Below, piece after piece: positions 9,739 through 62,343 of a stretch of 64,000 nucleotides of DNA (position 1 is the stretch's first letter; each line of letters begins with the position of its first letter). Made by a program: the position numbers and the translations under genes. Below the pieces are notes generated by a model. That model searched no databases. It was not told where the DNA came from and saw only the letters and a list, made by a program, of their open reading frames with translations. This DNA comes from Capsaspora owczarzaki ATCC 30864. Its lineage: Eukaryota; Opisthokonta; Filasterea. The DNA lies in contig NW_011887294.1 of the NCBI RefSeq assembly GCF_000151315.2, positions 913,951-977,950 of the forward strand, written 5' to 3'.

Positions 9739-12700
9739 ATGGATCCAAGCATGAACGGAGCTAACGCCTTCGCCATGCAGCACGAGTTCCAGCTCCGGTA
9801 TCAAGAGCAAATCCGGCAGCAAGTGTATGGCCAGCAGCAGCACCAGATGGACAACCCGGCTGCTGCAGCCTCATCGTCCTTCCTGCGCGACTTTATTGCC
9901 GCAGACGCATCCGAGCAACTGGACGCCACCCTCGTTTCCATGCTCTGGAATGCACCTGCACCACCATCAATAGCACCTCAGCAACTAGACTTCACGACTG
10001 ATGCTGCTGCAACCCCAATACCCGCTCAACCACCACAAGCATCTTCCACCGGCTCGGGACGCCGACGGCGCGGCTCTGCTGAACACGCTCAGGCTCAACA
10101 ACAACCAGCGGTGCAATCCTCGTACACCGTGCCCGAAATGCGTGGAAAGGACATTGTCTACAATCCAGACTTGCATCTGTGGTGCTCTGAGACGTTCGAG
10201 ATTGACTGCAGCGCCGGATATAAGCTTCCGTTGATTATTCTCGACATTGTTGCATGGGTTTCAGGTACATTGGATGATGCCACTTGTTGTTTCGTGGACA
10301 AATTGGTGGTGCGTTGCTTGTGACGATGATTTTGATGTTTGACGGCCCCGCTCCTGTTTGTGTGTGTTTTTTTTTTCCTTTTCTCCAAAACAGCCAACTC
10401 CATGCGCATCCGTTTGAGAAACGTTCCAATGGAGGACATTCGAACAGCGCGATACTCTCCAGGCGATGAGTGGTCAAAGTTTCCCTCTGACGGCACCATG
10501 GGCTACATTGTCCCGGAAAAGGCGTTTGCCCTCTTCCACGCAAACCAGCGCGGGAAAGGCATCACCCTGTTTCACTCGGGCAACAACAAGAATCCAACCA
10601 TCAAACTGCTACACGACCGAACAGATCGTCCAGCCTATGTGCGCTACTCGGCGTCGTTTCGTGAACCCGACATTGGGTTTTGCATGGAGCACTACTACGA
10701 GCTGTTTGATTGCTCCACCCCAGGTAATACAATCGCGGGCTTGCGTTTTCGTGCACTTTTTGTTGACTCCATTGCACTCACCCGACTTTTCTGCTTCTGT
10801 TTCTGCTTCTTCTTCTTCTTCTTCTTCTTCTTCTTTTTCTTCTCCTCGCTCTTTCTGGGCTCTCTCAGGTCCTTTTCTGCTTCTGCTCCCTTCTTCTTCT
10901 TCTTCTTCTTCTTCTTCTTCTTTTTCTTCTCCTCGCTCTTTCTGGGCTCTCTCAGGTCCGAAAGATACATACATTTGGATTAAAATGTCATCGGCACCCA
11001 AGAAACGAAAGCTGCGCGTCCTCCCGGTAGGCGGCGCATCTCCTGTTGCCCCGCCAGCGCCAGCCGCCGCACCCGCACCAGGACCCGGTGCTGCAAAGAT
11101 TCGGGGTGGCAAGCGCAAGCTCGACGCTACCACGCAGCTGCTCTCGTCGGTCCTGCAAGGTGTGGATATCGAAGCCGCGGGGGGAGACTCTGCCGTGCCA
11201 TCGCTGCATGACATTGCCTCCTCCTTGCCTGCGCAGGCCTGTGAGGATTTGCGACAATTCTTCCAGCCGGACATGCTCAATAATTCCGGCGTGTTTGGAA
11301 GAGTCGCCAATGCCCCAGATATCGTGAGCCACGCGGCGGAGAACACATTCGCCACGCGCGTCGTCAATATTTACGGCCAGTCTGGCGCCGGCAAGTCTTC
11401 CATGGCGCTCTTGTACGAGTCCCTGTATGCAGACAAGTACAGCTTCATTCGAACCATCAGCGGCGAGAACATTGAGCACGAGCTGCGCGAGCTAAAGAAA
11501 TCGCTGCGCCTCAGCGAGATGGTCCACGACAACATTCTGAAGGCCACGCTTGCGCGGTTCCCCGGCTGGCTCATGATTGTTGATGATCTGCACCAGAACG
11601 ACGTGTTGCGTCTCTTTTCCACAATTTCACCCACGGGTGGCCATGTGATTGTCCTGTCGTCCCAAGAGCTCGACTTGTCGCAGCTGCCGCAGGACATGAC
11701 GGCCTCGCACTCGGACACCGTCAGCACCGATAGTGGCGATGTGCCCGTGCAAACCGTGGCCGGGTTTGTTGTCGCCCAGCACGAAATCACCAGCTCCAAC
11801 GCGGACATGCTCCACCGCCTCTCTGGCATTGAGCGCGATCACGAAGGCGCGTTGGCACTCGCCTCCTGCCCCACCTGCGCATCGCACTCGCATGCCCTCA
11901 CGCTGTCTCAGGCGGCCATTGTCATTAGCAAAAACTACCAGCACCTTCCGCTTCCCTTCCACGCGTACCACAACGACTTGCATCTAACAGGAGCCACGGT
12001 CTCTGCGGCTCCCAAGCGGGTCGCGACCGATTCGCACAATGTTGAGACCGGATTGAGCTCTTCTTCCACCTGTTCCACCGCCGGCCACGACACTCTGGAT
12101 TCTGCCGCCGCGAACGGTAGTACTAGTAGCAGTGGCACCGCCGCTATGGATGAGGGCAGTGGTCCTCGAAGCGAAGAAGCGGTGCCAGAGCCTCGGCCAT
12201 TGTCGCGCCAGCGCCGAGGAGGCTCTCTGAACCGGAAAACGCGCTCGTCTGACAGCAGCTCACTTGGCTCGGCACTCGATCGAGAGCTCCAAGCTGCCGG
12301 ATATCCTGGAGGGAAATCGCCCGTGCCGCCCGCAATGCCGCAGCCGCCGCCGCCAAACCAATTCAATCTCATGCTGGGACTCACCCCAAATTGGATGCAG
12401 GTTTTGGGCACTACGAGCAGCATCAGTCAGTTCAGCCAGTCGCCCGTCGGCTCGCCTGGCAGCTCAAGTCCACTGCAAATGGCTCTCAGGCAACCGCCGT
12501 TCGGAACCGCGCCATCCACCACCATGTCAATCCCTCCTAGTGCCATTTCTTCAGCGGGAGCAATTCCCATGTTCAGCTCGCAGCCACTTCCCCTATCAGC
12601 CGGACTCACCTCGGCGCAATACCAGCAGCAACAGCAACAGTTCCAGCAGGCACAATCACAGTTTCAGCTGCAGCAGCAACAGCAGCAGCAGCAGCAGCAA

Positions 12701-15338
12701 CAACAAACGCACCGGTCTGCTCCGTTCTTTACCGACGCGCGTCGTTCGCTCTCTTCTGGTGCGTTGATGAGTTTGGACGATCCCGATGTTGATTCCGCTG
12801 GGAGAAATAGTCAAAATGCAAACAGTTCTGCTGCTCGACAGCACCAGCACCAGCACCAGCAGCAGCGCCTCTTCCAACTCTCTCCCCATCCGGGCGACAT
12901 GGTCTCGGTAGAGCTGCTGTCGAAAGAGCTTCAGCACCAAGTGCAGTCGCCCCAAGATGCCTTCTTTGCGAATGCTGCGCCATCGGAGCCGCCGCCGCAG
13001 CCGCTGCCAATGTCGTCTGGCAAGACCAAGCTGCGAGCCCATTCCGCGTCGTCGTCGATGGAGCGGCTCCCCACCACCGCCAGTGTCTCCAAGCCGCCAC
13101 CTCCCGCCACTGCGACCAACTCTGGACCGCAATTGTCCCTCTCAATGTCCACCCCGCTGCGAACTTCCGTCTTGCCCGAACCCGCGGTCCCAGCCCCTGC
13201 CCCTGTCACAGCCCCTGCCCCTGCCGCAGCCCCTGCCCCTGCCACAGTCGGCGTGCTCACTGCTGCGTCGCTTTTGCCTTTCGCTCAATCCGCCAGCGCT
13301 TCGTCGTCGGCTGCAGCGTTCGCGCCGAGTGTGCGACACGAGCCCCTCCCGCCGCCCGCCGCCGCTCGTGCATTTGAGCAGATTCTCGTGATTGCGAGTC
13401 GCGAGCTCGGGTTTGAAGGACCGCAGCAACTCAGCGTGCAACTCTTTGAAAGCGCGTGCTTCCTCGATTCTCGCAACATTCCCGTCCACTTGCTGATGGA
13501 GCTCGATCTCATGCGTCTGCCAAAGGAGCGCCATGCTGCCCAAAAGGAGCGTTTCACAAAGTACCTCAACAAGCTGTGCGAGCCAGAGTTTCACGGCTTT
13601 GTTTCGCCTGGTACGGTGACGCTGCAAGGTGTGTCGTGCAACACCATCTCCATCCACCCAAGTCGTCTTGCGATGGTCAGATACAGCTTGCGACAGCTGG
13701 TGAAATGGGCGCCCGCGCGTGCGGTGGGAGTCACCTTTGAGGAGCGCAATCTTCTGCAGGTGCTTCGGCACATCAACTCGCGAGACAGCTTCCATTTCGT
13801 CTACAAGAATCTCGCGTCGTGGCGCAGATGTCAGCTGACATATCTCCACGCTGTGAAGATCAGTGAGCACGCACAGGACTTTTTGCGGCGCTTTGACGAG
13901 GAAGTCCTGGCGGCAGCCATGCAGTCTGTTGGTGCAACAGCTGGTGGCGTCGGTGCGCCATTTGGGACGGATTCTGCCACCTCTGATCCCTCCAACAGCT
14001 CTTTCGCACAATGGCTGCTTGATGCCGACCAGGCTAGTGCAGCCGTCGGTGCAGCCGCCATGGCCGTGGACGAGCGTCAGGGTGGCGGCCGCAGCAGCGC
14101 CACGGCCTCAGCGCAAGATACGCCCATCACGTTTGAGTTTACTCCGGTCGAGGAATTTGCGTACGAAAGCCAAGATCACTACGTGCTGACGGTGCCTGCC
14201 GTCCGTCGCTCGCAAGTCATTCGCTTCCACCTTGTGCAACTCTTGTACAACCTGGGCAAGTTCACTGGCTCGCTCTCCTCGGACGTGAACGAGCCCTTGC
14301 AGCTGCTCGAGCGCGCCGCCGTCACCTTGGAGGCCATTCCGCACAGTGGGCAAATTCCTTCGCCAACGCACAAGCTCTGGCAGCTCAAAATCATGAAGGC
14401 GCTCGGGAAAGCGCATCGGCGTCGTGGCGATTTCCAGCAAGCCGAAAAGCTGCTGGGCCATTCGATCGTGTCCTTGGAAAAGCTCCGACAGTTTGCACTC
14501 ACGCTGTCCCTCCAGGACTTGGAGCGCGAGGTTGTCTTTGAGTTGGCCACTGCCCATCACTCGCTTGCGCGCGTGTATCTTGTTCGCAACCTGTTCCATG
14601 AGGCCCTCCGCTCTATTGACGACTGTCTTGCACTCAAGCTGGAGGCTCGCTTCCGCTCTGCACAGAGCAGCAAGCAGCTGAACGGCGAGATTGCAATGTC
14701 GCTCAACATTCGCTCCATCATCAACTACAAGCTTTCTCGTTTGTATGAGGCCACAACAGACATGCAACGGACGCGTGTTGCGCTCGCCGCTTCCGATCTC
14801 GTTCAAAGTGATGTCAGCAGCACTGGCAGCGGCATTGCAACAATGGAAACTCCCGAAACAGCAATTCCCCAGCACGCCGACCATATTGAAATCTCGTTCA
14901 TTGACGCCAACGAAGCCATGATTTTGTACAAGCTCGGACAGTACGGCCGCTCATACCAGCTCTTCCGCACTGCCCGCGATCGCGTCGAAACGTCGCCAAG
15001 CCTCGGAGGCAACGATTTGTGGGTGCCCACCATCTTGCAGAACATGGGTGTTGTGCTGGATTGCGAGTTTCAACACGCCAGGCTGGCGAGACTGCGGGGC
15101 CAGGCGCTGGCCCAAGCTGGCGTCGGGCTTCCCATGCCTGACGAGGCACCCAACGCTTCGTCTGCGCGTCAGGGCCTGGAGCACCTCAGCGAGGCCAAGC
15201 GCATTCTCGACTCCATCTACTCGACGCTTCCTGTGCAGCTGCCCATTTCTGCGACCGACGCGGCCATGCTGACGCTCCGCGATTCCCTCCAGGACACTTC
15301 GCTGGCCGCCTCACGCTCCCTCCTTCCCGGCAGCAGCG

Positions 15339-15385
<47 letters not shown>

Positions 15386-16141
15386 GGCCATGCTGGCGAG
15401 CACACGCAATCCGAGAGTCTTTTGCTCTTGCAAGACCACGCTTCGTCGCCAGGTGTTGCTGCTGCAGCACCCAGCAATGGCACAAACTCGGCCCAGATGC
15501 TGTTTGCTCAACACCAGCAGTACCAAAAGCAGCTGCAAAGTATGCAGTACCACCAGCAACTGCTTGGTGTTCAAATGTCGTACAATGGCATGCGCTGGGT
15601 GTTGGGTGGCGTTCAGCACATCAACCAAGCGGCGGTGCTGCTCAACGTTGCCGTCTACGCGTTTGGCTGCGACGAAATTGATCGGGCGCTCACGCTCCTC
15701 TTGTTCACCGCAAAGGCCATCCAGCTACTCGTCCCGAACGAGGCCCATCTCGAGCACGCATTTTACGGCGCAGTGCTGCACGCGCTGGGCAACGTCCACT
15801 TTGCCAAAGCACACTACGAGGAAGCCTACACGACCTTCCAGTCCGCGCTCGACGTGACGCGGCGCGCGTACAAGAACGATGTGCACGTGTCCATGGTGGA
15901 CACGATGCACAACCAGGCGCTGGCCGAGTTTATGTTTATGCGCAGCGCAGGACTCGACCCAAACCTGGCCATCGTGTCGCTCACACAGGTGCAGCAACTG
16001 CGTGCCCATCCGCAACTGGTGGATGTTTCGCGGGAGATTGCTGGCGAGACGGATCGCCTGATGAAGGCTCTGCGCAGCGGCGCAATGACTGCGATTCCGC
16101 CGTGCTTTTTGACCAACCGACGCATCATGTTGACACACTAA
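9739..16141 (+). CDS. STAND-type (NB-ARC-like) P-loop NTPase with TPR-like C-terminus
   Basis: Three exons, 9739-10264, 10394-10723 and 10956-16141 (all phase 1), give 2,013 residues. Order: Gln-rich N-terminus; an unrecognised domain at about 140-285 (MRGKDIVYNPDLHLWCSETF to FCMEHYYELFDC); a basic patch PKKRKLR near 300, likely nuclear localisation; a P-loop GQSGAGKSS near 425; a hydrophobic strand with paired acids WLMIVDDL near 490 (Walker B or kinase 2); a strand HVIVLSSQ (sensor). Residues about 635-1080 are low complexity with Gln, Ser and Pro-Ala repeats. From about 1080 to the end it is helical with TPR-like pairs (for example HALGNVHFAKAHYEEAYTTF). A signal-dependent switch ATPase with a superhelical sensor is the usual STAND plan; ligand and output here are unknown. 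The mix of NLS and unknown N-terminal domain suggests a nuclear role. Confidence 0.8.
10782..10955 (+). repeat. Tandem duplication of an intron 3' end, two 87-bp units
   Basis: The polypyrimidine tract and acceptor CTCTCAG/GTCC of the second intron of the STAND gene occur twice, 87 bp apart (exon starts 10869 and 10956). Both copies end in the same TTCTCCTCGCTCTTTCTGGG block. Because 87 is a multiple of three and the unit is open, use of the first acceptor would add 29 residues. Confidence 0.85.
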
Positions 16142-33333: not shown

Positions 33334-36272
33334 ATGGAAGGCTTTCGACGCGCGAGTCGGCGATTCAGCCAACGGTCCAAGCCACTGTTTGGCGTCAACT
33401 ACAACGACCGCGTCGAGGCGCTTGCCTGCGAGGCCATGATCTTCCTCGAGCAAGAAGGTGAGCGCCGAGGCTGAGTGTAATCGAGGGAGAGAGAGTTGGA
33501 GAGAGCAGCAGGAAGCGGGATTCAAAGTCGGGTCCTTCTGCTCTCCTGACTGTCTCGATCACTTCTTGGCGTTTTGGCTTTGGCCACTCTTTTTTTTTGT
33601 GTGTGTGTTTTGCTCCACAACACACACACTCGCACACACACAAAACAGGGCTCAAGGAGGAAGGTCTCTTCCGCGTGCCTGGCTCCGTGCCGACCGTCCA
33701 GCAGATGAAGAAGGACATCAACCGGGGTGAGTCCTCACTCTCGCTCTCGCTCTGCTCAAACTCGCTCCCTTGTCTGCTCTGTTGCTCTTGTCTGCTGTTT
33801 TCGTTGGTTTGATGCGTCGATGGCAAGTTCGAGTATTCGTCCCTGTGGTTTGGGTGGCAGCTGTGGTGCAAGTGTTGGTTGGGAAGCAACAACAACAATA
33901 ACAACAACAAAACACGGCAAAAAAAAAAAAAAAAAAAAAATCTATTTCGATGGTTGTTTGAGTTTAGCATTGGTTTGCATGGCAACTCTATGATCTGCGA
34001 CGGTGGTGGTGAACAACCCAAATCGCTGCATTCAAAATTCTGTTGTTTGCACGCCTTGGCCTGCCTGCTCATGAAAGTGAGAGGGGAAGAGCGGTTGGAC
34101 TTTTGACAACGTTTTGTTGCCAGCAGATGTCAGGCCCACAAAACCAAACAACACATCTAGACTTGGTCTCAATCTAACTTACAACCAACAAAAAAAAAAC
34201 CCTTTTGCCTGATGCACTTGGAACAGGCGAACGAGAGGGGTTTCAACGCGAGGACTCGGTGCACGATGTTGCCAGGCAAGTATCAAACTCTGTTTCTTCG
34301 AGTCGTTCGTTCACCGTTATGCGTTTGTTCGTTCGTTCGATGCTGGTTTTTGGCTGACTTGCATCGTGATTGCTGAATTGACGTAGCTTGCTCAAACAAC
34401 TCTATCGAGAGCTTGCCGAGCCGCTCATGACTTTTGATCTTCATGATGTTTTCATCGCAGCGCAAGGTGCAGTCGGCCGTCTTGTCGCGTTGCTTCGCAT
34501 CTCGTGACATTGAGGGGAAGGGGATGACAACCAAATCTCACTTGACTCGTTGTCTGTGCAATCCCTTCGTTGACGTGCGTAGCCACGAGTGGGGATGCCA
34601 AGTCTCGTCGAGAACGCATTCTCGCCACCTTGGATTTGATGCCGGAAGCCAATCTCAACGGACTGAAGGTAGGTGGTGGCTTTTGATGCGGAGTGTGTCT
34701 CGCCTTATCGTCGTTGGTGAACTGACACGTTGTTACAGCTCTTGATGCAATTCTTGGCCAAAGTTGCTCGCTTCTCGAAATTCAACAAAATGGAGCCGTC
34801 CAACCTGGCCATTGGTGCGTTCGTGTTTGTGGTGTCTGCTGGTCTCTGTTCGATTCGATGCGTGTGCTCATCGTTGCGTTTGCTTTTTTGTCCTGTTCGT
34901 CGTCGTGTCGGCAGTGTTCGCACCAAGTTTGCTGCGATCAAAGGAAGAGTCGACGCAACTCATTACAGACTCGGTTGTCTCGACCGCCCTCCTTGTCAAT
35001 TTGATTCAAGATTTCAATTACTTTTTCGCCGTCAAGCAAGGTAAGTCGCACCTCGCTTTCCGAGGTGTCGAGCATGCACACAAAAATGGCCGAGATTTTG
35101 AATGACTCATCGAATGATCGCATAGAGGCCAAGGCACTCTACGACTACAAAGCAGTGGACGAAAATGAAGTGTCGTTGACACGAGGCGAAAAGATTTTCG
35201 TTTTGACGCCACCAGGTTTGTTTTTGCAACCTTTGGCACGGATGTGGTTGCCATTCCAAAAGCCTCACGTCTTGCGTTGCTGGTTTGTGTTTTTTTGGTA
35301 CGTGATCGGGTTGTAGACGACGAAGAGCCCTCGGACTGGATCAAGGTTGAAGTTGGCTCCAACAATATTGGCTATGTGCCGACCAAATTCATCACGTTTG
35401 ATCTCACAACACCAATGGGTAAGGCAGATTCAGCGCAGATGCAGCGCAGATTCGCTCGTTTCGGCTTTTTCGCCAACTCAACGCGTTTCTCTGCTCGGCT
35501 CGTCGCGCAGGCGAAGGAGAAGCCCCAGATACAGTCTACACTGAGGGCATTCGTCTCACCGCCCAGAAGGTCAAGAGCTTGATGGAGGCACGATACCAAG
35601 AGATTTACTCGAATCTCGAGCGCCGCGACCGAACATTCTCGACCCTCCAAGTCTTCCGCTCGCAAATGGAACAAAAGTACTCGACCTTCCGAAAACTCAG
35701 TTCAAAGCGATTGGAAGAGGTACGGGTTTGTCGCTTTTGAGCATTCTTGTCACGGGGACTTGGATTTGTTGATCGGTTTGTCGCTTTGGAACACTCTCGG
35801 ACCTTGTTGATCGGTTGCTCATAATTCTGGAACGCTTGCACCCCCGACAGGAGCGTGTCAAATTTGAAAACACTCGTGTCGCACGGTTCAAACAAATGAT
35901 GGAATCCCGCTACGGGCGGCCTCCCGGTCAATCTCCAGAGACGGATGCTGAAAATCAAAAGGTGTGATGATTGGCAGATTTTTTTTTTGTTATTTTGGTG
36001 TTGCGGCGTTTTCTCTGCTCACTGTTTTTTGCTCGCTTTGTTCCGCTTGTCCGAAAATACAGATCAGCGACGATTTCAAGCACATTCTGCTCGATCGCAT
36101 GGACCGAATCAAGCGGGGCGAGTTTAACTTTGGCGACGCCAGCGTCTTCAACAAGATGTCCGAGGACGAGCTGATTGATCGCTCGATTATGCTTGCGACT
36201 GCTCGGCCGAATCACTCGCGGTCTGCTTCCTCTGTGAACTCTGAAGATGCGGCCGAGACGAGCGCAGTGTAG
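33334..36272 (+). CDS. RhoGAP-SH3-coiled-coil protein
   Basis: Twelve exons (33334-33457, 33649-33726, 34227-34275, 34387-34466, 34583-34668, 34739-34814, 34915-35040, 35126-35215, 35317-35418, 35511-35719, 35851-35961, 36063-36272) give 446 residues. RhoGAP at about 20-205: FLEQEGLKEEGLFRVPGS (catalytic arginine in LFRVPG), VASLLKQLYRELAEPLM, NLAIVFAPSLLRSKE. SH3 at about 208-270: AKALYDYKAVDENEVSLTRG, DWIKVE, GYVPTKFI. A coiled coil follows (about 280-380). The GAP should switch off a Rho-family GTPase while SH3 binds proline-rich partners. The third intron uses a GC donor (AG/GCAAGT at 34276). The domains recall PI3K p85, but there is no SH2 in this frame and the order differs. Confidence 0.93.
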
Positions 36273-36837: not shown

Positions 36838-39800
36838 ATGTCGCGACGCTTGGAAGATGCCATGGAGTTCGAGGTCCTGGACGTCGAAGTCGTGGAAGAG
36901 TACAGGTGCGCGCAAGCTTTTCGAGATGGGACAATCGCGTCGGTGATGTTCGCTCTTTTGGCGGGGGGCAGCCGCGCCTCAGACCACTGCTTGCTGCTGA
37001 GTGTTCGAAGGATGAGGCGGCCGCACGACACAGGGCAGGGACGTGAGGCTCAAGCAGGGGGCCTCCAGCGGTAGTCGCGTCAGGCGTGGTGTCCCGCCTT
37101 GGTTGATTGATTGAGCGAGCGAGCGACGCTTATTCGTTACCGCTCGCTTCGCCTCCACGCCATTCTGCTTGAAGTAGGGGGGAAGGCACCGCAGTCCGAG
37201 CGACGGTGATGATGCAGAGTGTTACATTGCCTTGCAGCACGACTGGTCCCGAGTTGGCTGGCGAGAGCGAGAAAGAAACGAACAACTATTGCGGAGAAGG
37301 GGAAAAAAAAAAAAAAAAAAAAAAAACGAAACCGCGAAACGATTTTTTTTTTGTAATTTTAAGCACTTTCTTATGCGAGATCCACTCACCCAGTTGTGCT
37401 CTCGGCAAGTGGGCGCGTGGTCGATGCCATGAATACGCGCTCATTCGTCGTCTCACGGACTGTGCACACGATTCACCGCATGAAACGCAGCGACAAAAAC
37501 GCAAAAAACAAAAACCACTCCAATCCCACTTTTCCTTACATGGCTTTGGACAGCTGGCTCCAGATCACTTTTTTTAATGCTTTCGCCTGCCTCACCCTCC
37601 CCCCTTCGAATTCGAATTGGAATGTCGTGATACTGCATTTGAATCATGACCTTCCTGCAACGACGATAAAATCCAGCTGGTCGCTCAAACTGACGAAACA
37701 TTGTTCTGTATTTTCGCTCGTTGCCGGTTTTTTTTTTGTGCTGCAGTTACTTCCACCCCGGCATTACAAGACAGCAAGCTGAAGCTCTCCTCGTCAATGT
37801 AGGAGATTTCCTGCTGCGTACCGCTAGTACCGGTGGCTACTCGCTCTCCTTGTTGTAAGCAACTCGATTTGGTTTTTTTTTTTGTTGTTTGGTTTCAGAC
37901 TTGGCGCAAGTTTGTTCTCATCCCCCACGGCACGCACCCCTTGCACTCTCATCTGACAGGGACACGGATCGCGTCCACCACTACCAAATTTCCAACGCAG
38001 CCGAAGGTGGCTTTCGCATCCAGTTTGCTGGACAGTCCATGACCTTTCCGCGCATCTCTGAATTGATCGAGTATTTCTCGACCAAGACGAGCCTTGATGG
38101 AACCTTGCTGGCAACTCCCGTTGCCTACAACGTACGTGTGCACCCTCTTTTTTTTGCTACTGCCGCTGCCTCCTTTTTTTCAATCTTACTTCATTTTTTA
38201 CTATTATTTATTGCCGTAGACAACCGCGAACGCTTCGAGCGACTACAGCTCAATGCTTCCGACGCGGACTCCGCCTGTCGTGCCACCGTCAGACTACTAT
38301 GACAAGGGCGCCCTGGCAGCGAGCATGGCATACCGTGACCCGCCGAGTGCCCCGACATCGGAGCGAACGGACAGGTCACTGAACAATTTGCTCGAAACGC
38401 TCGACTCCTCGACCGGCCGGTTGGAGCGCATGGAGATGCAAAAGTTCAACCGAGCGACCAAGCCAAAGATGGTTGCCACCTCGTCCTCGGTGGAAATCTT
38501 GAACGTTGAGGAGACGCCGGACGACGAGACTGTGCCCGATCAGGCCCGGCGCGGCACGGCGTCTGGCGGCGGTGCTCCTCCAGGCTCCAATGCTGCGGTG
38601 ACTGCGCTGTACTCGGCGAGAGCCAAGGCTTCTCACGGCATGCGCGTGGTTGGCTCGGCCGTCGCATCCTCCATGACCTCGCTGCGTCACGCACTCAACC
38701 GACCCGCGCCCAAGGAAGAAGTCGAGCACGAGAAGCCACACCGCTCCAGCTGCTGCGTTCGCTGTTACAAGGCCATGGTCAAGACACGCAAGCGCCGCAT
38801 TGCCACGACGATTTGCGCCCTGCTGCTGTTGGCCCTGATTTGCTACCTGATTGCCGTCCTCGTCCTGCTTCTCCCCTTGCTCAACGCTGCTGTGTTTGTC
38901 GATACAATCACGCTCCCAGAGCTGTGCTCGGCGGCCGGCGTTCCGTTCGTACTCAAAACATACCTGTACAATCCGGCCTCAGTCGGCGCCTCCTTTGAAG
39001 ACACGACCGCGTACATTTATTCCGACGAGTATGGCCTCTTGGGCCACACAGACCTCACCGGCCAGAGCATCGAACCAGGCAATCTCACACTTTCGTTTGC
39101 GTCAAAGTTTGTGGTGGACAACGAAGTGGCCGTCCGGACTGTCGCTCAGCGGTTTCTCGACGAGTACCAGGTTCCGCTCAAAGTCACCGTCAAGCTGACA
39201 GTCCACACTGGCATCATCTTCCCCATCTCGATTGAGTTTGAAGTCCCGCAAGTCCTAAACGGCCCGCCTGCTGAAGGCGAGGTGGAGCCTCCGCCGTTTC
39301 CACCTTCCGGCCTCAAGGCCCTCTCGCTGCTGCCCGCCAACTACCAAACTGAACTCAACCCGCGGGTCAATGTGTGGATTAGCAACTCTTCGTTCGTTCG
39401 CGCGACTGTCCCGAGCCTCGAGTTTGACGTGTACGATGCCCATGCCCGCAGAATGGGCTCTGGTCGCTCCGAGCCTGGGTTTTACGGGCAAGAAGGCGCC
39501 TATTTGTGGGCGACGGGTGGCATGCGCACGGCCAACTTGGTTCCTGTGCAGGATGCACTGAACGCGTACCTGACCAACTCGAGCCTCCAAGCCGTTATTC
39601 GCGTCGCCGATCGCAATCCCGACGATTGCTACGTGCAGGCGCTTCTTGCCGGCCTGAACGTGACATTGACTCTCAACTCGACCACGGTGGACGACCCCAC
39701 GTCGCCTGGGGGCGACAACTCGACGTCGTCCGGGGATTCGCTCTCCATCAATGGCCTCTCGGTCGACACGATGAGCGACTCGGAGGTCGGTCTCACGTTG

Positions 39801-42800
39801 AACATTACTCTTCCCCAGTTCCTGGCAGATTACGACTTCCATGGTGACATTCCGCCCATTCGCGTTGGAGTCACCGTCTCCGAGTACGGTTTGGCTGAAA
39901 TCCAGCTCGAGCCCATGTTCCTCAGCGAGTTCAGCCCAGACGTCACCATCAACGTGACCGTCCGCTTGCTGAATGCTTCGGTCGTCATGGATGCAACGCT
40001 CGATTATCTGGGAAGCAGCGAGCTCATCGGCGATGTCACTGGTGTGCCGGCGCTCAACCTTTCTCTTGTCACTGATATTTTGACTGCCGTGTCTGTGACG
40101 TTCACCATGAACCCGGGCGACGAAGAGGACGACGACTCGAGCCACGGTGGAAGTGCGCGACGTGCCGTTCTGGATGATGCCGTGACCACTCGCGCACGTT
40201 CTGGCCTGCGATTCGCGTCCGCGCTCAAGTCCTCAATGCACACACGCGCATCGACCACCGCCTCGGTGCCTCACCGTCGCAAGAGCGGCTCTCGTCAAGT
40301 CTCGTCCTTGGCTGACTTTGTCAAGGCTGCGCTGGACTTGCTGCGCTCAGACACCCAACGACAAGCCAAGCCTCTCGGTCTGCCACACTTGGACGAGGGT
40401 GGCATTGCTCGCCGCGATGAGCCCATTCAAAACAACCCCTCCTTGAACAGTGTCAACGTCACGGTCGACGTGCAAAGCACCGAGCCCAGCGTGATGGGCT
40501 TTGTGGATGTTTCGATGCCTCTCGACTACCTGTCGCTCGACATTGCGTGGAAGCGGGTCGAGTGGAGCCTGTTCAACAGCGAGCACATTGGCTCTCTTGT
40601 CATCGAGCCCTTCGCTGGCAAAGGAGGGCACATTACCCTGAACCTGACAGTCTTTGACTCGCAAAATGGCACCCACCTGACCAACCTGGTGACGGACTAC
40701 ACGGACGACATTGACGTCAAGATTGACATCACGGGCACGTATGGCGCAACTCCTCTCGTGACAAGCATTGTCATGCCTCGCAGTCTGCCCAAAAAAGACA
40801 GTGAGAACGACCACTCGGACGACGACTCGGACGCTTCCATCGACGCTGCATCGTGGGTCAGCCTGAACATGATCGAGCTGCAAGGTATCAACCAGACGAC
40901 CTTCTGCTTTGATGTTTCGCTGAATCTTGAGGTCAGCTTTACGTTGCAGCTCAAGTTCCCGGCGCTCGAACTCGACATTGCCTTGAACAACACTGCCATG
41001 CTCACGCTCAACACATCGCCCCTCGACGTGTCCTTGGAGGACAAGCTCGTCAACGTGTCTGCCGGTCTCACGATTATTGCCGCGCAACAGCTGGTCTGGT
41101 CTGTGCTGGACTACATTGACGAGAGCATGCTGGTTGTCGGAGTGAAGGGACGGCCTGGAAGCAACTTTTTGAGCACCATCATCTCCTCGATTGACTTTTC
41201 CGTCGAGCTGGGCGGCGCCTCGCCCTCGTTCAACTCGACCGTCGACCCCAACCTGAGCTTCACCAACAACTCGGATGTGTCCCTCATTGTCGAGTCCGAT
41301 CTGTCTTCCGTGAACGCCTCCCTGGCGTGGCTCTTGAGCTCCGACTCGCTGACCTTCACTGTAGCCTGGGGCGACTTGGATGTGAGCATTTCCTCCTCCA
41401 ACCGGAGGTTTAGCAAGGTTGTCCTCCCGTCCGCGCACATTGGCAAGACCTCGAGTCTCAGTTTGATTCAGGGCGCGCTCTCCATTTTTGGCAACGACAA
41501 TGGAACCTTTGTCCGTGGCATTCTGCAGGACTTTCTCGATGAAGAGTACGTGACCTTGAGCTTCAACGGCAGCTTCACTTCTCGCGCGAACGGGCACAAG
41601 GTCTATCCCATTGCGACGGGGTTCAAGTTCAACCAGGAAACGTTCACGCGCCCTGCCACCGGACCCGAGACCGGCCCTTCGTTGGACGACGGTATCAAGT
41701 TCTTCAATGGTGTGGAGCTCATCTACCTGCGTGGCACGAACGTCTCGGCGGTCGCCAACATCACACTGGCCTCCGGAATCGGCTTCAACGTGACCATCCC
41801 GCCGCTCCTTCTCTTTGCTGATGTTGACGGTAGCCAGCAGTTTGCCAACGTGTCCGTTCGCATTCCCCAAGTTCAGGCCGCGACCCGAGCCCTGCCCACG
41901 CAGGCCAACTTGGCTTTTTCGAGCTGGATGGATTTGTGGACTGTCGGCAACAAGTACTTGAACGAAATTCCAGTCACCGTGGTCGTTTACGGCGATCGTC
42001 GGCGCGGCGCCAACTTTTTGTCCCAGATCATCCCTGAAATCAAGCTGAACGTCACCCGGCCGCCGCCTTCCACCGAAACGCCCTCGTACACTGCGCCCTC
42101 CAATGCCTCCATGGACATCTCGGCGTCCGTGGAATCCACTGCGACAGCTGCCATCCTCAGTGTCAACATCACCGTGGTCAAGGAGCTCGACTTTTACTTC
42201 AAGTGGGGTGCCATCAACGTGGAGGCCAGCAGCCCCAAGATCTCTGTGCGTCAGGCCATTCTGACCTCGCCTGGCACGTTGGTCGGACCGTTGGGGTCCA
42301 AGGCGTCCATTTTGCTTGTCATTGACGGGACGTACGCAAAGGTGTGGGCCAACCAGCTCTACAACGGCACCAACTTTATCATGCGGCTTGTTGGCTCCCT
42401 CGGCTCCGATCCGACTGGATTTGCCTCCGATGTCTACATTCCATCTTCGCTGCTCAAGAACAACACCAAACCGTTGCAACCGACAAACGCGCGCCGTGCC
42501 GCAGCTTGGAACCCATGGATGACTGCCGAGCAACGCCGTGCTCAAGAAGACGAGGCTGCCTTCGAAGCCAGTGAGCTGCGTTTCCAGCGAGCGCGTGCGA
42601 GCACCAAGCGCAGTGATGCCTTTTCCTCCCAATCGACCCGCCACGAGCGTCGCGATGCGTTCATGCGAGCACGTCGTGACACACCCTCGACGACTGCGAC
42701 AGACGATGACTCCATCCCTGGGTTTGCTCTCAAGCAAGTCCGCATCAATGGCGGCGACCGCTACAGCTCTGGAATTGAGCTGCCGTGCTATCTGGGCCAG

Positions 42801-45301
42801 TACTGCGGCTCCCTTGCGCAGACTCTCCAGCCGACTGGAGTCATCGCTGGCCTGCTCATCAAGCTTCCCGATCTCCCTGGCGTCACATTCCAACTCAAAT
42901 CGAACTTGAGCATCACCCTCTATGCCAACGGCCTGCAAGTGGGCACAGTGTCCATCTTTTCGCCCATCCTCCTGACTCCAGGCATGCGCCAGCTTCCAGC
43001 CGCCATCCAGGTGTTGATTTCCAATGTAGCCGACACGAAGGCGGCCGTGACCACCATGATGGAGGGCTCGGACATGAGCTTTAGCGCGTCGGGCACGTCT
43101 GCATTCAACTACCTGTCCGACATGGTCTCGCTGGTCGAAATCAACTTTGACATTCTGGGCAACCCTACGCCCGAGACGGTGGGTCAGCTGCCGGCGTCCA
43201 ACATGACTCTGGTTGCCACGTCCTCCACCGGTATGACCGTTGATATCGAGATGGCCTTCACCAACCCGACTTCGACCACCTTCCTTCTGGGCAACGTCAC
43301 TGCCCAGGTCATCTACGGCCACTTTATGACGGGCGCATCACCTCCGCAGCGCAACGTTGCGACGGGATGGCTCACCAACTTTGCTCTGGTGCCCGGTGAG
43401 AATATCATTCGTGCACGACTCCAATTGAGAGCGCCGGATGCCTGGGGGGTTACGCTCGCGAATGACGTTCTGTCCCGGTTTATCTGGTCGTTGACGCTGC
43501 CGCTCGAGCTGTCCGTGGCGATGAACAATGGCCAGTACTCGAGCGTGTTGCACACAGTCTTCACCATGCCTGAGCAGTATTCCGAGTCTGGGTTTGTTGT
43601 CGGCTTTGACATTTCGTTTGGCGACTCGTTCAGCTCGACGTTGTCGAACGGCTTTAAGATCACCATCGAGGCGACAAAGACCATCCACAACAAGCTCCAG
43701 TGGCCCATCAGAATTCCTCGTCTCTCGTACAATCTGTTCATGTGGGACATGAACGGCGTTCAGGATAACGGATGCGCCGGCCCATGCTCAGTTCTCGGCT
43801 ATTGCGAGACTCCTTGGCCGACCAGCCAAATCATCTCGCCAGTGACAATTGGGCCCTCCACGTCCATTGTGACCGGTCAGACGATTGTACCCGTGGGCGT
43901 CAACGGGCAGATTCCATTTTCGTTCCAGCTGAGCGGTGACAATGCCATGCGCGTCTACGACCAGTACATGACCGAGAATCAAATGTGTGGCGATGTGCTC
44001 AATGGTTTGATTACGGTGGCAATGGCTACCGATGGCTGTCCCGTCGGCGACACGTCGTGCACCTACAACGCTGTCATCAATTTTGACTGGAAGAACTATG
44101 CGTTTGCTGGTACAGACAGTTGCGGCCAGTTTGCCATCACCGGCTGCACGCCAACATTCGCCACTCCATCGTTTAGCTACTCGGGCACCGTTGCTTCCAC
44201 CAACATGGTTGTTCGAGGATCTGCTTCGACCAATTCCAACAAGTTCCCAATTACGCTGACCGACGGCGCATCTGACGTGGGTGGCATGTGGTTCAACTCG
44301 CTCGTCAATGTCCGAGATTCGTGGCGTGCAACGTTCGCGGTGAAAATTACGGACGGAATATCCTGGCTCGCCAACCCAGCTGGCGAAGGGTTTGCCTTTG
44401 TCATTCAGAACAACGCGAATGGCCTGAACGCGCTTGGCTCTGCCGGCGGAAGCTCCGACTCTGGCTGTGGGTACAAGGGTCTCACCAACTCGATTGCAGT
44501 GTACTTTGACTCGATGAACTGCAACGAGATGTACATGCTTTCAAACGGCGTCATCACGCCAAACTTCACCAGCTGGTCAACGCCTGCCGAGTTTGACGCA
44601 GAAGATGTGACCACCCAGTTCGTTGTGACGTACGACGCAGATGGGCATCGCATGTCAGTCGCCACAGGTGGCCGTGTCTCGAACTTTGACTTTGACATCG
44701 ACCGCATGATGACCCTGAATTCCGGAAGAGCGTACGTTGGTATGACGGCGGCCACGGGAAGCTACTATGCTTCTGGTCACATCGTGTCGTTGTTCTCGTT
44801 TGAACAGAGTAAGTTTGACGTAGTTTTTTGGGTTTCTCGGCTTTTTGTCCAATTTTCGCTGCAACGTTTCTCACGTTTCGTCCGTTTGCCTTGTTTTGTT
44901 TGGCTCCGTCCCCCGCTTCTTGCTTTGTGACAGTCACGACCGACTCTTCCAAAACAACGCTTGATGGCTACCTCATGGCACCGTACGAGTTTGCTGCTGG
45001 TTATCTGCACTTCCAAGCTCGTGAATCTTGCAACCGCAGGCGCGTAACTGGAGGTGACACATTCATTGCAACCATGAGCATGGCGTCCGCTCCGTTCACG
45101 GTTGTTCGTACGTTTACCAAGACGGATCCGATCAACTCGATTACGGATTTGGGCACTGGCTTGTACCGCATCAACTTCCAGTCGGCGCCGCCTCGTGGGC
45201 GCTACGATATTCGTGTGCGATTGTCCTCCTGTGCCGCCGGCACAAGCTGCGAAGTCCTCATTGCGAGCATGTTTATGCGACGTGTAGTGATTGAGGATTG
45301 A
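36838..45301 (+). CDS. Transmembrane protein with cytoplasmic SH2, DUF3712/LEA-like ectodomain and L-type-lectin-like domain
   Basis: Five exons: 36838-36905, 37747-37854, 37960-38131, 38220-44808 (one 6.6-kb exon) and 44934-45301; phases agree; 2,434 residues. SH2 at about 22-112: YFHPGITRQQAEALL, FLLRTASTGGYSLSL (the phosphotyrosine-binding Arg in FLLR is present), RVHHYQIS, ISELIEYFS. A linker of about 190 residues has DYSS and SDYYDKG. One membrane span at about 311-336 follows KTRKRR, so the N-terminus should be cytosolic (type II). The ectodomain has several LEA_2/DUF3712-like beta modules (first: LPELCSAAGVPFVLKTYLYN) with many N-glycosylation sites, a Cys-rich segment, an L-type-lectin-like domain at about 2094-2310 (EGFAFVIQNN, NSIAVYFDSMNC) and an Ig/filamin-like C-terminus. 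Ligand and partners are unknown. Confidence 0.88.
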
Positions 45302-45791: not shown

Positions 45792-46013
45792 TCAAGGCCT
45801 CCTGTGGTGGCCCACGGGAGGGGTCGCGGGTTGGTTGGTGGACTGCCACGGGAACGGGTTGCTGCGGTGGTGGAAAACAACGTCTTTGGCGCTGACCGAT
45901 GTGTGAATCATCGCTGCAACGCCGAACGTCACTGCAGAGCCGACAAAGGTCACCAGCGGAATGAGCTCCTTGTTGGCTTTCAAGTCGCTAAATACGGTAC
46001 TGATAGCACTCAT
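45792..46013 (-). CDS. MLRQ/NDUFA4-B12D-like small mitochondrial protein, copy A
   Basis: Single-exon 73-residue protein from the ATG at 46013. It has the MLRQ/B12D family outline: LIPLVTFVGSAVTFGVAAM membrane helix, then HTSVSAKDVVF and the NPFPW box near the C-terminus. In animals NDUFA4 is a small inner-membrane subunit associated with cytochrome c oxidase; B12D relatives are in plants. The copy at 46344 shares the same plan and the same strand, so this is a tandem pair that may encode alternative subunits. Confidence 0.8.
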   Translation of the reverse strand: MSAISTVFSDLKANKELIPLVTFVGSAVTFGVAAMIHTSVSAKDVVFHHRSNPFPWQSTNQPATPPVGHHRRP

Positions 46014-46343: not shown

Positions 46344-46553
46344 TCATGGGCGTCGGCGGTGCGACTCGGGCTTGAATTCGTTGGGATCGACGCTCTGCCA
46401 CGGAAATGGATTGTTGACGTGATCCACGACAACGTCCTTCTTCAATGTGGTGTGGATGATGGACCCGATGCCATAGGATACGGCTCCAGTGACAATAACC
46501 ACCAAAGGAATAAGCTCGCGGTGCTTTCGGACGTCGTTGACAAGGGAGTTCAT
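46344..46553 (-). CDS. MLRQ/NDUFA4-B12D-like small mitochondrial protein, copy B
   Basis: Single-exon 69-residue protein from the ATG at 46553, paralogous to copy A. Family features are KHRELIPLVVIVTGAVSYGI (membrane helix), HTTLKKDVVVDH and NPFPWQSVDP, ending ESHRRRP; copy A ends HHRRP, so the C-terminus is conserved too. It probably sits in the mitochondrial inner membrane with the respiratory chain. Divergence between copies is substantial, so the duplication is not recent. Confidence 0.82.
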   Translation of the reverse strand: MNSLVNDVRKHRELIPLVVIVTGAVSYGIGSIIHTTLKKDVVVDHVNNPFPWQSVDPNEFKPESHRRRP

Positions 46554-51420: not shown

Positions 51421-51742
51421 TGAAGGAGGTTGTTGGATGGATTTTTTGGATCGATTTTTTGGTACTGGTATTTCGTGGTATGGAGCAGCTGCAACAACAC
51501 AAAGACAGCTGTATTGAATGATGAATTGATTTTCGATTTCCTCGCTACAACCCTACAAAGTTGAAGCACTCTTCATTTTTTTTTTTTTTTTTTGTTTCAT
51601 TTCCACTGTGTTGCAGAATAACAAGGCGATACAACTCGCAGTCGTGAGGCTTAAACTCGCCATGCTATCGATCGTTTTCACAACGTTGACTTATCTTGTT
51701 TGCTCTGATGCTGCGTGTGTGTGGGCTCAGTTTCCTTCCCAA
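51421..51742. other. Intergenic, upstream of the CUE-Smr gene
   Basis: T-rich (about 51577-51593). The downstream frame stays open to 51608 with an in-frame ATG at 51662, so the N-terminus of the next gene could extend into this stretch. Confidence 0.45.
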
Positions 51743-53464
51743 ATGGCTCAGAGCGACCCAAACGCGCTCCTCTTCTTCCAGCAACTGCTGCCAGATCGCA
51801 GCGCGTCCGACCTCGAAGCGCTCCTGGCAGCCCACAATGGCGATGTGGACGCCGCGCTCGACCACGCGCTGAGTGAAGCCCTGATTGCCAGCACGGCGAA
51901 CGACGAGGACGACGAGACCCAGGCTGCGGCAGCGGTCATGGCGCTTGACGTAACGCCTGAGACTGCACCCGTCAGCCAACGAGACCAAGACCCAGTCACA
52001 GGCACACTGGTAGGAGATCCAGGAGTGCCCGAGTCAACCAGCAGCCGGAGGATATTCGCGATGGATGCGTTCGCGGTCGAGGACGCGCGTGGCGGGCGAA
52101 GAGGCCATGTACGCGATCAAACTCAGTTTGACAGCGATCTGATTGTCCTGTCCGACGTGTTTCCGAGCTTCCCGCTGGACGTGCTTGCCCAGATGCTCAC
52201 TGGGATGCCATCGGCGGAGCATGTCATTGAGTGCCTGATTGCCGAGAGCGACAGCTCGTCGAGCGACGAGGAGCACAAGTTCGCCACTGATGCTGGTGAA
52301 TGTGAGAATGACGATGATGGTGATGATGATGCCTATGGTGCCGCAGATCAAGCAGCACCTCAAGTTCTCCAGAATCATCCCTCCAGGCATGGAGGAGCTG
52401 GACAAGAGCGCCGTCGCGGGCCGCGCGAGTCTGCTTCGACAATGCAAACACCGTTTGTAAGCGCTTGGGCTCCGCGATCCGTCCGCATGGCCAACAGCAC
52501 AACCCTTCCACCTGCTCGGGAGGAGGCATTGGGCCAAGCGTCAAGGCAAGCCAGCGCAGTGCAACCTGCTGCCATTGCAGGGGCTCCAAAGCCGATTGAC
52601 ATGTCCGATTCCTGCGACACGAGTCGAACCCTGCATAGCGCAGCCTCGGTTCTCAAGCGGTCACAACTGCGAGATGATTTTCCTGAGGCGTCGTCGGATA
52701 CCGTGGATGCAGTGTTTGTCCAGTGCGGGTATGACTTTGGTGCCTCCAGCGCGCGATTGAGTGAGATGTTTCCGCAAGCTGCCAAACGAAAACCGTCATA
52801 TCCCGCCGCTGTTCGGGCTGGCGGCCAAAGCGTTCCTTCCGGCTTGACTAGAGGCGTAGCATCGTCACCCTCGGTCCCCACTCACACAGCAGCCTGGGTT
52901 GGCACCTCCTTCCCCTCGAGCAGCGCTAGCCCAGCAACACACCACACCATCGCAGTGCACGAGGATGCACGCGCGCACTACTTGCAACGAGCTGCAGCCG
53001 CCCATGCCAATGCTACTAGTAGGAACGGAGGCGCGTCTGTGGCTGGACACTACTCACAGCAAGCACATCATCACACGCAGGAGCTGAAGCGCGCCGCACA
53101 ACAAGCCGCTGTGGAAATGGCGCGCGCCTCGATTCGCTCCTCTACAGCCCCATCGATTGATCTACACGGCTACGGGGTCGCGGATGCGGTCGCTGCTGTG
53201 CAGGCAGTGCTCAACGAGCTGCATCAGCGCGCCAAACAAGATGACTCGTTCATGAGCCACCGTGGTGGTAGGTCTGGCGGCAACCGCAACAACAGCGGCG
53301 ACGCTGGAACTTTACGCATTATCACGGGCCGAGGGGCGCATAGCGTCGCAGGAAAGGCCAAATTGCGTCCAGCCGTGCGCGTGCTGATTGATTCACTCCG
53401 ATTCCCTTACTCTGAACCACAGACGGGCGTCTTTTGGGTGGATTATACGCGCAAGATTCGTTAG
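51743..53464 (+). CDS. CUE-DUF1771-Smr domain protein (N4BP2-like)
   Basis: Intronless, 573 residues from the ATG at 51743. A longer start at 51662 would add a hydrophobic leader and is less likely because the CUE domain begins right after 51743. CUE-like ubiquitin-binding helices are at about 5-45 (LLFFQQLLPDRSASDLEALL), 130-168 (LSDVFPSFPLDVLAQML) and 310-345 (LRDDFPEASSDTVDAVF). DUF1771 at about 405-460 has EDARAHYLQRAAAAHANAT and GHYSQQAHHHTQELKRAAQQ. The C-terminal Smr domain at about 470-570 has SIDLHGYGVADAVAAV and LRIITGRGAHSV; DLHG and GRGAHS are signature motifs of Smr nucleases. Relatives act in RNA cleavage linked to ubiquitin, for example in ribosome-stalling quality control. That role is inferred by family. 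Confidence 0.92.
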   Translation: MAQSDPNALLFFQQLLPDRSASDLEALLAAHNGDVDAALDHALSEALIASTANDEDDETQAAAAVMALDVTPETAPVSQRDQDPVTGTLVGDPGVPESTSSRRIFAMDAFAVEDARGGRRGHVRDQTQFDSDLIVLSDVFPSFPLDVLAQMLTGMPSAEHVIECLIAESDSSSSDEEHKFATDAGECENDDDGDDDAYGAADQAAPQVLQNHPSRHGGAGQERRRGPRESASTMQTPFVSAWAPRSVRMANSTTLPPAREEALGQASRQASAVQPAAIAGAPKPIDMSDSCDTSRTLHSAASVLKRSQLRDDFPEASSDTVDAVFVQCGYDFGASSARLSEMFPQAAKRKPSYPAAVRAGGQSVPSGLTRGVASSPSVPTHTAAWVGTSFPSSSASPATHHTIAVHEDARAHYLQRAAAAHANATSRNGGASVAGHYSQQAHHHTQELKRAAQQAAVEMARASIRSSTAPSIDLHGYGVADAVAAVQAVLNELHQRAKQDDSFMSHRGGRSGGNRNNSGDAGTLRIITGRGAHSVAGKAKLRPAVRVLIDSLRFPYSEPQTGVFWVDYTRKIR

Positions 53465-60658: not shown

Positions 60659-62343
60659 TCATCGCGGTGGCAGGGCAAATTTTGCATAGCGAACAATGTG
60701 GCGCTGGAGGGAGGCATCACAGTCAAAGACATCCTGTACAGCGAATCCGGGCACAAGCCAGGTGTGGGCGCTCTGGGTGCACGGCACGGAGGGCAAGCAC
60801 AGGCTTTCGGTTTCGGCAAAGTGTGGTTGTTGTTGTTGTTGTTGTTTTTGGAGGTCCACCTCCACCTCTAGCACACAGTTGTTGTCGTCACCAGTATTAT
60901 TGCTCGCTTCGGGGCCGGCGTGTGGGCAGCGGGAGACTGCGCCGAGAGCTGCTCGTGTTGCAAACACAGACACACTGAATTGGCTCGGTCGGAAAACCCG
61001 AAGCACGCGAGCGACAATTTCGTTGTGGAGATGGAGCGGCGCGTTCGTTTCAAAGCTCACAAACGAGCATTCGGGCTGCGGAGTAACGTGAATGGTAAAG
61101 TAGTGCGGAGGTCGCCGTAGCCGTCCCCGCCGTCGACTCGTCGTCTCGTCGTCTTCCACACCAGCACAGTCACCGTCAAAGATGCCATTGGCGGAGTAGC
61201 CGCAGGGATCGAACAGGAGACTGCAAATGGTCGTTCCGGGGATAATCCCTGCAACACCAGTCGTCAAGTCTGTCGTCGCGTCATTGACGAACGCAGGTGT
61301 GCGGTAAAATTGCTGCATGGCGACCGGATCGAGGTTGGTCATCAGCACTTCGAGCGTTTGGTCAACCTCGGCATGACCGGAGGCACGTTTGGAGATTGGA
61401 TTGAGGCAAAACACATGCCAATCATCACGGGAAATGACCACGCCACTCTGGGCGCCAAAGAGCGAGCGCAGATAATCCACTTCCTCGTCAAACCCGCGAT
61501 GGGGCTCTGGTTGCTCCTCTGGCCGCAAAAATGACTTTCGAGAAAAGAACAAGTCCTGCAGTTCGGACAGTCCGCACCGTTCTCGGGCAATCCGCATGAA
61601 TTCGGGGAGTGCCGGAAGCAGCCGTGTTGTTCCGCATGTTTTGATAACAATCTTGCGTCTTGCGACAAACATGGAGCTTTCGCTGTGATTTCGATGGCCA
61701 GCAGTGGTGGTCACGGTCAAAGTAGCAGCATAGTAAAGATGATCGGGTGAGCTCAACGAACGCCAAGACGAACAAAGAAAAAAAAAAAAAAGAAAAAAGC
61801 TCCGCAAACGACCCCAAAAAAAAAAAAATCACACGCCAGCAACATGCAGAGAGACATTGCAAGAGACACAAGAGCATCGTACCTCAATACGTAGGCATTG
61901 TAGACGCTGCTGGGCGCGGATGTGCGGCAGATTGTGCAGTTGACTAGCCGCAAAACGACCTGCCACTCGTCGGCGGTCACGGCTCGGAGTCCCTGTTGCG
62001 ACAAAGAGCGCAGTGAGCCCAAAGACATGAGAACACGCTGTTCACTGCTGGCTGTGTTGTATGTAATGCCGCAGTGGATAGTGCTCGGCTTGATGCGTGT
62101 GTGTGTGTGTGTGTGTGGTTTCGTTATCGATCGCCACATGCTCATGCAATTTGCAGAGCGAAAGGGCAGTTTCCATGTGTGTCGCTCTCTCTCTCTCTCT
62201 CTCCCTCAACCCTGCCTCACGCTCAATCCCTTTTGCAAAACTGCAAACGAAATGCAGGTAGAGAGGCAAGTCAACGCATCGACTCGTATGCGATCATCTT
62301 GAAGCACTCCGCCAAGAATCAGCGTGAGCGTTGTTTCATCACC

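What the first reader, a model, noticed from the sequence alone, without database searches (positions are those of the whole stretch)
36838..45301. SH2 domain built into a giant transmembrane lectin-like receptor
One 2,434-residue protein joins a cytoplasmic N-terminal SH2 domain (binding Arg present) to a membrane span and about 2,100 extracellular residues of LEA_2/DUF3712-like modules, an L-type-lectin-like domain and an Ig/filamin-like end. SH2 domains are usually in soluble adaptors and kinases; I know of no animal family with this order. It would let a surface protein dock directly onto phosphotyrosine inside the cell, the reverse of a receptor that recruits SH2 adaptors. All splice phases agree between the SH2 exons and the 6.6-kb exon.
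Basis: partly seen in the sequence, partly recalled or inferred. Interest (0 to 1): 0.85.

Follow-up and report, generated by a model that had tools for sequence, protein, structure and literature searches.

The report
Membrane-anchored SH2 protein of Capsaspora
A single-celled relative of animals has a giant membrane protein that carries a phosphotyrosine-reading SH2 domain on its cell-interior tail and, across the membrane, a chain of modules that weakly resemble the human lysosomal protein TMEM106B, ending in a lectin; it could tie tyrosine signalling directly to a membrane receptor or to the lysosome.

Summary
SH2 is unequivocal (54 bits, residues 24-98), keeps three of four recalled pocket residues, and is split by a phase-2 intron at a place shared with 11 of 14 other SH2 loci inspected. 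A membrane span follows at about 310-336; N-glycosylation sites are enriched only beyond it, so the protein is probably type II. An L-type lectin (2094-2312) is confirmed; the Ig/filamin end is not. The middle is a chain of about eleven stretches, of which eight behave as copies of one module. LEA_2 profile scores stay below cut-off, but predicted folds of two modules resemble LEA_2 structures, the TMEM106B luminal domain among them, weakly. TMEM106B, Tag1 and Vac7 sit in lysosome or vacuole, so 'extracellular receptor' is only one option. Transmembrane SH2 proteins are already reported from choanoflagellates; this is a new variant with N-terminal SH2 and another ectodomain. No orthologue was found by searches of limited reach. 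Location, ligands and binding are inferred.

The parts
36838..36905 (+). exon 1: start codon, residues 1-22 and two bases of codon 23
   Evidence: spliced model identical to CAOG_02284
37747..37854 (+). exon 2: first half of the SH2 domain, ends in phase 2 after the YSLSL strand
   Evidence: Pfam SH2; intron place shared with 11 of 14 other SH2 loci inspected
37960..38131 (+). exon 3: second half of the SH2 domain, to residue 116
   Evidence: Pfam SH2 24-98
38220..38798 (+). rest of the cytoplasmic part, residues 117-309: two class I SH3-ligand patterns (at R132 and R155), tyrosines, three cysteines before the membrane
   Evidence: motif scan; motif meanings recalled
38799..38879 (+). membrane span, residues about 310-336
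   Evidence: hydropathy maximum 3.26 over 19 residues
38883..39302 (+). LEA_2-like module A, residues 338-477
   Evidence: Pfam LEA_2 E 0.0036, below cut-off; leave-one-out 18.2 bits; fold matches 8b7d, 3but, 1xo8, all weak
39303..44150 (+). modules B to K, residues 478-2093, with basic linkers after modules C and H
   Evidence: MAFFT alignment A1; leave-one-out test: B-G and I pass, H, J and K do not
44151..44807 (+). L-type (legume) lectin domain, residues 2094-2312
   Evidence: Pfam PF00139 E 1.3e-11, above its cut-off
44934..45301 (+). exon 5: C-terminal tail, residues 2313-2434, and stop; no recognised domain
   Evidence: no Pfam match; chance-level PDB matches; one NCBIfam match far below its cut-off

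Best explanation
CAOG_02284 is a single-pass type II membrane protein that works as a membrane-anchored SH2 adaptor. The cytosolic tail (residues 1-309) binds tyrosine-phosphorylated proteins through its SH2 domain and offers SH3-ligand patterns and tyrosines to kinases or adaptors. The exoplasmic side is a glycosylated chain of about eleven LEA_2-like modules resembling TMEM106B's luminal domain, capped by an L-type lectin that would bind glycans. Retention or clustering by luminal or external ligands would concentrate phosphotyrosine complexes at that membrane. I favour an endolysosomal or phagosomal membrane slightly over the plasma membrane. Shown: gene model, SH2, lectin, module repeat. 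Supported: type II topology, LEA_2 fold. Inferred: binding, location, ligands and signalling.
Confidence: 0.6

Rival explanations
1. Cell-surface receptor: the module chain and lectin face the medium, prey or neighbouring cells, and the SH2 tail docks phosphotyrosine proteins at the plasma membrane.
For: Lectin domain; glycosylation-site-rich exoplasmic side; choanoflagellate transmembrane SH2 proteins have protocadherin, thrombospondin and similar ectodomains.
Against: The folds nearest module A include the luminal domain of lysosomal TMEM106B, and its named yeast relatives are vacuolar; no surface evidence.
Confidence: 0.38
2. Two genes or two mRNAs: an SH2 transcript (exons 1-3) and a separate LEA_2-lectin transcript starting in exon 4.
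For: The SH2 domain ends near the end of exon 3, and exon 4 has its own methionine at residue 128 before the span (sequence). Retention of intron 3 would end the frame after 172 residues.
Against: Exon 3 and exon 4 are 88 bases apart with good splice sites and agreeing phases, leaving little room for an ordinary end and promoter; the database model joins them.
Confidence: 0.08
3. The SH2 fold is kept only as a scaffold and no longer reads phosphotyrosine.
For: One recalled basic pocket position is Q68 instead of lysine, and the stretch after the FLLR arginine reads TAS.
Against: Both recalled pocket arginines and the histidine are present; full-length Pfam match.
Confidence: 0.12

Closest known systems
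Choanoflagellate transmembrane SH2 proteins (Choanoeca perplexa protocadherin-domain protein; five YxxP-repeat transmembrane proteins of Monosiga and Salpingoeca, three of them with SH2-like domains)
   Same: A transmembrane protein of a unicellular animal relative with SH2 in its own cytosolic region and a modular ectodomain (PMC6040629 passage; PMC5043372 section 10).
   Different: In the YxxP-repeat proteins the SH2-like domains are C-terminal; here SH2 is N-terminal, so the orientation is type II, and the ectodomain is a LEA_2-like chain with a lectin instead of protocadherin, thrombospondin or DUF5011 modules.
TMEM106B / Vac7 / Tag1, LEA_2 proteins of lysosome and vacuole
   Same: A membrane span with LEA_2 on the luminal side (LEA-2 and location from a passage in PMC12297828; type II topology recalled).
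   Different: They carry no SH2 and no lectin as far as I know (recalled); here there are about eleven modules, and Pfam's LEA_2 cut-off is not reached.
CAOG_08917, DUF3712 protein of the same genome (P0002)
   Same: By eye, a hydrophobic span after a cysteine-rich stretch, then LEA_2-superfamily modules.
   Different: 606 residues, DUF3712 61.3 bits, no SH2, no lectin; its modules do not match the profile of this protein's modules above shuffles.
Metazoan transmembrane adaptors such as LAT (recalled)
   Same: Membrane-anchored platform for phosphotyrosine complexes.
   Different: Those offer tyrosines to SH2 proteins; this one carries the SH2 domain itself.

Membership tests
SH2 domain proteins | Full SH2 profile match | tested here: met
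   PF00017 positions 1-77, 54.2 bits, cut-off 21
SH2 domain proteins | Phosphotyrosine-pocket arginine in FLxR | tested here: met
   FLLR with R47; also R31 and H66; roles recalled
SH2 domain proteins | Binds phosphotyrosine | not testable with these tools
   needs a binding assay
LEA_2 superfamily (PF03168/PF12505; TMEM106B, Vac7, Tag1) | Pfam match above the curated cut-off | tested here: not met
   best 18.2 bits against 25.4 (LEA_2, module A); DUF3712 18.5 against 24.1
LEA_2 superfamily (PF03168/PF12505; TMEM106B, Vac7, Tag1) | LEA_2 beta-sandwich with helix | tested here: inconclusive
LEA_2 superfamily (PF03168/PF12505; TMEM106B, Vac7, Tag1) | Type II single span with the modules on the exoplasmic side | tested here: met
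   by sequence only: span, basic flank, sequon enrichment; needs an experiment
LEA_2 superfamily (PF03168/PF12505; TMEM106B, Vac7, Tag1) | Lysosome or vacuole location | not testable with these tools
   needs a tagged protein
L-type (legume) lectin | Pfam match above cut-off | tested here: met
   PF00139 44.9 bits, cut-off 26.3; the related PF18483 is below its own, 56.7 against 78.3
L-type (legume) lectin | Metal and sugar binding residues | not tested
   no residue-level alignment to a solved lectin was obtained
Choanoflagellate transmembrane SH2 proteins | SH2 and membrane span in one protein | tested here: met
Choanoflagellate transmembrane SH2 proteins | Several cytosolic YxxP repeats (of the five YxxP proteins) | tested here: not met
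   two YxxP, one of them inside the SH2 domain
   no Pfam match for exon 5; best PDB E 0.12, antibody heavy chains

The most novel reading that the evidence does not exclude
A TMEM106B/Tag1-type endolysosomal LEA_2 protein with an SH2 domain built into its cytosolic tail: phosphotyrosine signals would dock directly on the lysosome or phagosome membrane, and the row of LEA_2 modules with a lectin at its tip would bind lipids or glycans in the lumen, so tyrosine signalling and lysosomal cargo or lipid handling are joined in one chain in a relative of animals.
Probability: 0.3. Interest if true: 0.78.

Novelty: new variant of a known kind. Interest (0 to 1): 0.57.

Why it matters
It shows a second way, with SH2 at the opposite end, in which a unicellular relative of animals wired an SH2 domain into a membrane protein, outside the choanoflagellates for which I found reports. 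If the location is endolysosomal, it would be a direct test bed for how tyrosine signalling met the lysosome before animals, and for what LEA_2 modules, the fold of the neurodegeneration-linked TMEM106B, do in tandem. Capsaspora genome editing has been reported (PMC9170242, title and abstract start seen), so the tests are practicable.

Tried and rejected
Paralogues: the 2195-residue exon-4 protein finds only itself in the genome (2 candidates); LEA_2 has no match, not even in this gene, so that search is insensitive; legume lectin finds only this gene; DUF3712 gives two rows, both in CAOG_08917.

Orthologues: three searches of 5.8 billion proteins gave only the query itself: exon-4 protein (7986 candidates scored), residues 1-470 (7994) and CAOG_08917 residues 150-606 (7994). 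The tool needs shared exact words and a limited length range, so absence in other filastereans is not shown.

First module cuts by rough coordinates gave little pairwise signal (best hhalign probabilities 36-41% and 16-18%, one pair 10%); cuts placed by eye on recurring strand patterns were then used. The by-eye choice could favour the repeat; the shuffles keep composition only. The 74 decoys came from open frames of the window, some of which may be non-coding.

A profile of the eleven modules against PDB sequences gave two chance-level matches. Lectin against PDB sequences: nothing at E 0.01, three chance matches at E 10. NCBIfam: nothing above a cut-off; exon 5 matched a phage spike-fibre model at 15.7 bits against 36.

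A close duplicate among neighbouring SH2 genes: the SH2 locus at C3:982 kb (L014) shows no tblastn match to this SH2 at E 1, so no recent tandem duplication.

A furin-type pattern RARR at residue 1599 and basic linkers suggested cleavage of the ectodomain; left as an idea.

Papers: no held paper names CAOG_02284 or DUF3712/CAOG_08917. Searches for transmembrane SH2 proteins. PMC4265756 was searched for SH2 and has none. The Monosiga tyrosine-kinase paper PMC2453073 is not held.

Full report
What is there. The window lies in an unnamed 27.5-Mb genome; the protein database names the matching protein CAOG_02284 of Capsaspora owczarzaki ATCC 30864. Joining 36838-36905, 37747-37854, 37960-38131, 38220-44808 and 44934-45301 gives 2434 residues, identical to that record. 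Introns are 841, 105, 88 and 125 bases with GT/AG ends. No RNA data could be consulted, and the database model may itself be a prediction.

SH2. Pfam finds SH2 over its full length at residues 24-98 (54.2 bits, cut-off 21; 50.9 bits in the whole protein). The best solved relatives by sequence are ZAP-70 and SYK (137 distinct sequences at E 0.001 or better, 60 shown). R31, R47 and H66 stand where the phosphotyrosine pocket is recalled to be; a further recalled pocket lysine is Q68. The domain is split by an intron in phase 2 just after the YSLSL strand. In the same genome I inspected 14 other loci, picked mostly because their SH2 match was cut at this place; 11 show a donor at the same place and phase, two (L022, L025) did not fit the search expression, and in one (L026) the SH2 found is uninterrupted. 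Seven other fetched SH2 loci with unbroken matches (L015, L027-L031, L033) and L001-L008 were not put through that call. Of the 34 SH2 rows, 17 run through this place without a break or stop, so the intron is common, not universal. It confirms the exon 2/3 junction and ties the SH2 exons to the genome's other SH2 genes.

Membrane and topology. A strong hydrophobic stretch at about 310-336 (best 19-residue mean 3.26) follows KTRKRR. N-glycosylation sequons number 36 in residues 334-2434 against a shuffle mean of 21.5 (0 of 2000 reach it) and 35 against 17.3 in the module region; residues 1-310 have 2 against 1.8, and the lectin plus tail only 1 against 4.1. This fits a cytosolic N-terminus. The cytosolic part also has two class I SH3-ligand patterns (at R132 and R155), tyrosines at 22, 115, 125, 142, 143, 154, 247 and 299 outside the SH2 match, and cysteines 294, 295 and 298 before the span.

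Lectin and tail. Residues 2094-2312 match the legume lectin family above its cut-off. Sugar-binding residues were not tested. The tail, exon 5, has no credible match.

Kin in the genome. CAOG_08917 is a 606-residue DUF3712 protein (61.3 bits) with, by eye, a cysteine-rich stretch, a hydrophobic span and then modules. Pfam shows no SH2 in it. This suggests, without proving, that an SH2 cassette was added to a type II LEA_2-like protein. Its modules do not score above shuffles with this protein's profile, so direct descent is not shown.

Known or new. Transmembrane proteins with intracellular SH2 are in print for choanoflagellates: a Choanoeca perplexa protocadherin-domain protein (PMC6040629, passage) and five YxxP-repeat proteins of Monosiga and Salpingoeca, three of them with C-terminal SH2-like domains (PMC5043372, passages and section 10). 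The present protein differs by its N-terminal SH2 and type II orientation, its LEA_2-like chain and its lectin. The listings showed no paper on this protein; I read only the passages named. I file it as a new variant of a known kind, not as a member of the LEA_2 family, whose profile cut-off it does not reach.

How it most likely works. Shown: gene, SH2, lectin, repeated module. Supported: topology, LEA_2-like fold. Inferred: that SH2 binds phosphotyrosine proteins, that the lectin and modules bind glycans or lipids, and that the two ends are coupled by clustering or retention at one membrane. Endolysosome or phagosome is slightly favoured by the fold resemblance, the cell surface by the choanoflagellate parallels.

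Noticed in passing
window 34570-36272, + strand (3' part of a gene): The gene just upstream encodes RhoGAP (59.9 bits) and SH3 (49.6 bits) domains and its stop lies 565 bases before this gene's start codon; the SH2 protein's tail carries class I SH3-ligand patterns. A link is only an idea.
   Followed up: partly
window 45792-46013 and 46344-46553, - strand: Two tandem small genes of the B12D (MLRQ subunit) family (PF06522, 39.5 and 48.6 bits), 330 bases apart: a local duplication.
   Followed up: partly
genome SH2 loci L014, L016-L021, L023, L024, L032, L034: A phase-2 intron at one place inside the SH2 domain is shared by 11 of 14 inspected loci besides this gene; it could mark an ancestral SH2 intron.
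   Followed up: partly
window 38132-38219: Intron 3, if retained, would give a 172-residue SH2 protein with a hydrophobic stretch in its tail; alternative splicing could make a short form.
   Followed up: no
window 42666-42677 (residues 1599-1602): RARR, a furin-type pattern, lies in a long basic linker after module H; the lectin half might be cleaved off.
   Followed up: no
L013, CAOG_08917: An uncharacterised DUF3712 protein of Capsaspora with a span before its modules, perhaps the genome's plain Tag1-like member.
   Followed up: partly
window 37748-38083 (residues 24-100, exons 2 and 3): Two Pfam domains of unknown function overlap the SH2 domain: DUF7063 (28.2 bits in the N-terminal slice, above its cut-off of 27; 25.7 in the whole protein) and DUF7145 (18.4 bits, cut-off 28.2); they may be divergent SH2 families.
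   Followed up: no
window 51530-53461 (+), 10418-16138 (+), 60662-61828 (-), 3862-4788 (+): Neighbouring genes by Pfam: CUE (with a sub-threshold Smr match), TPR repeats, S-adenosylmethionine decarboxylase, eIF3 subunit 6 N-terminal domain; ordinary.
   Followed up: no
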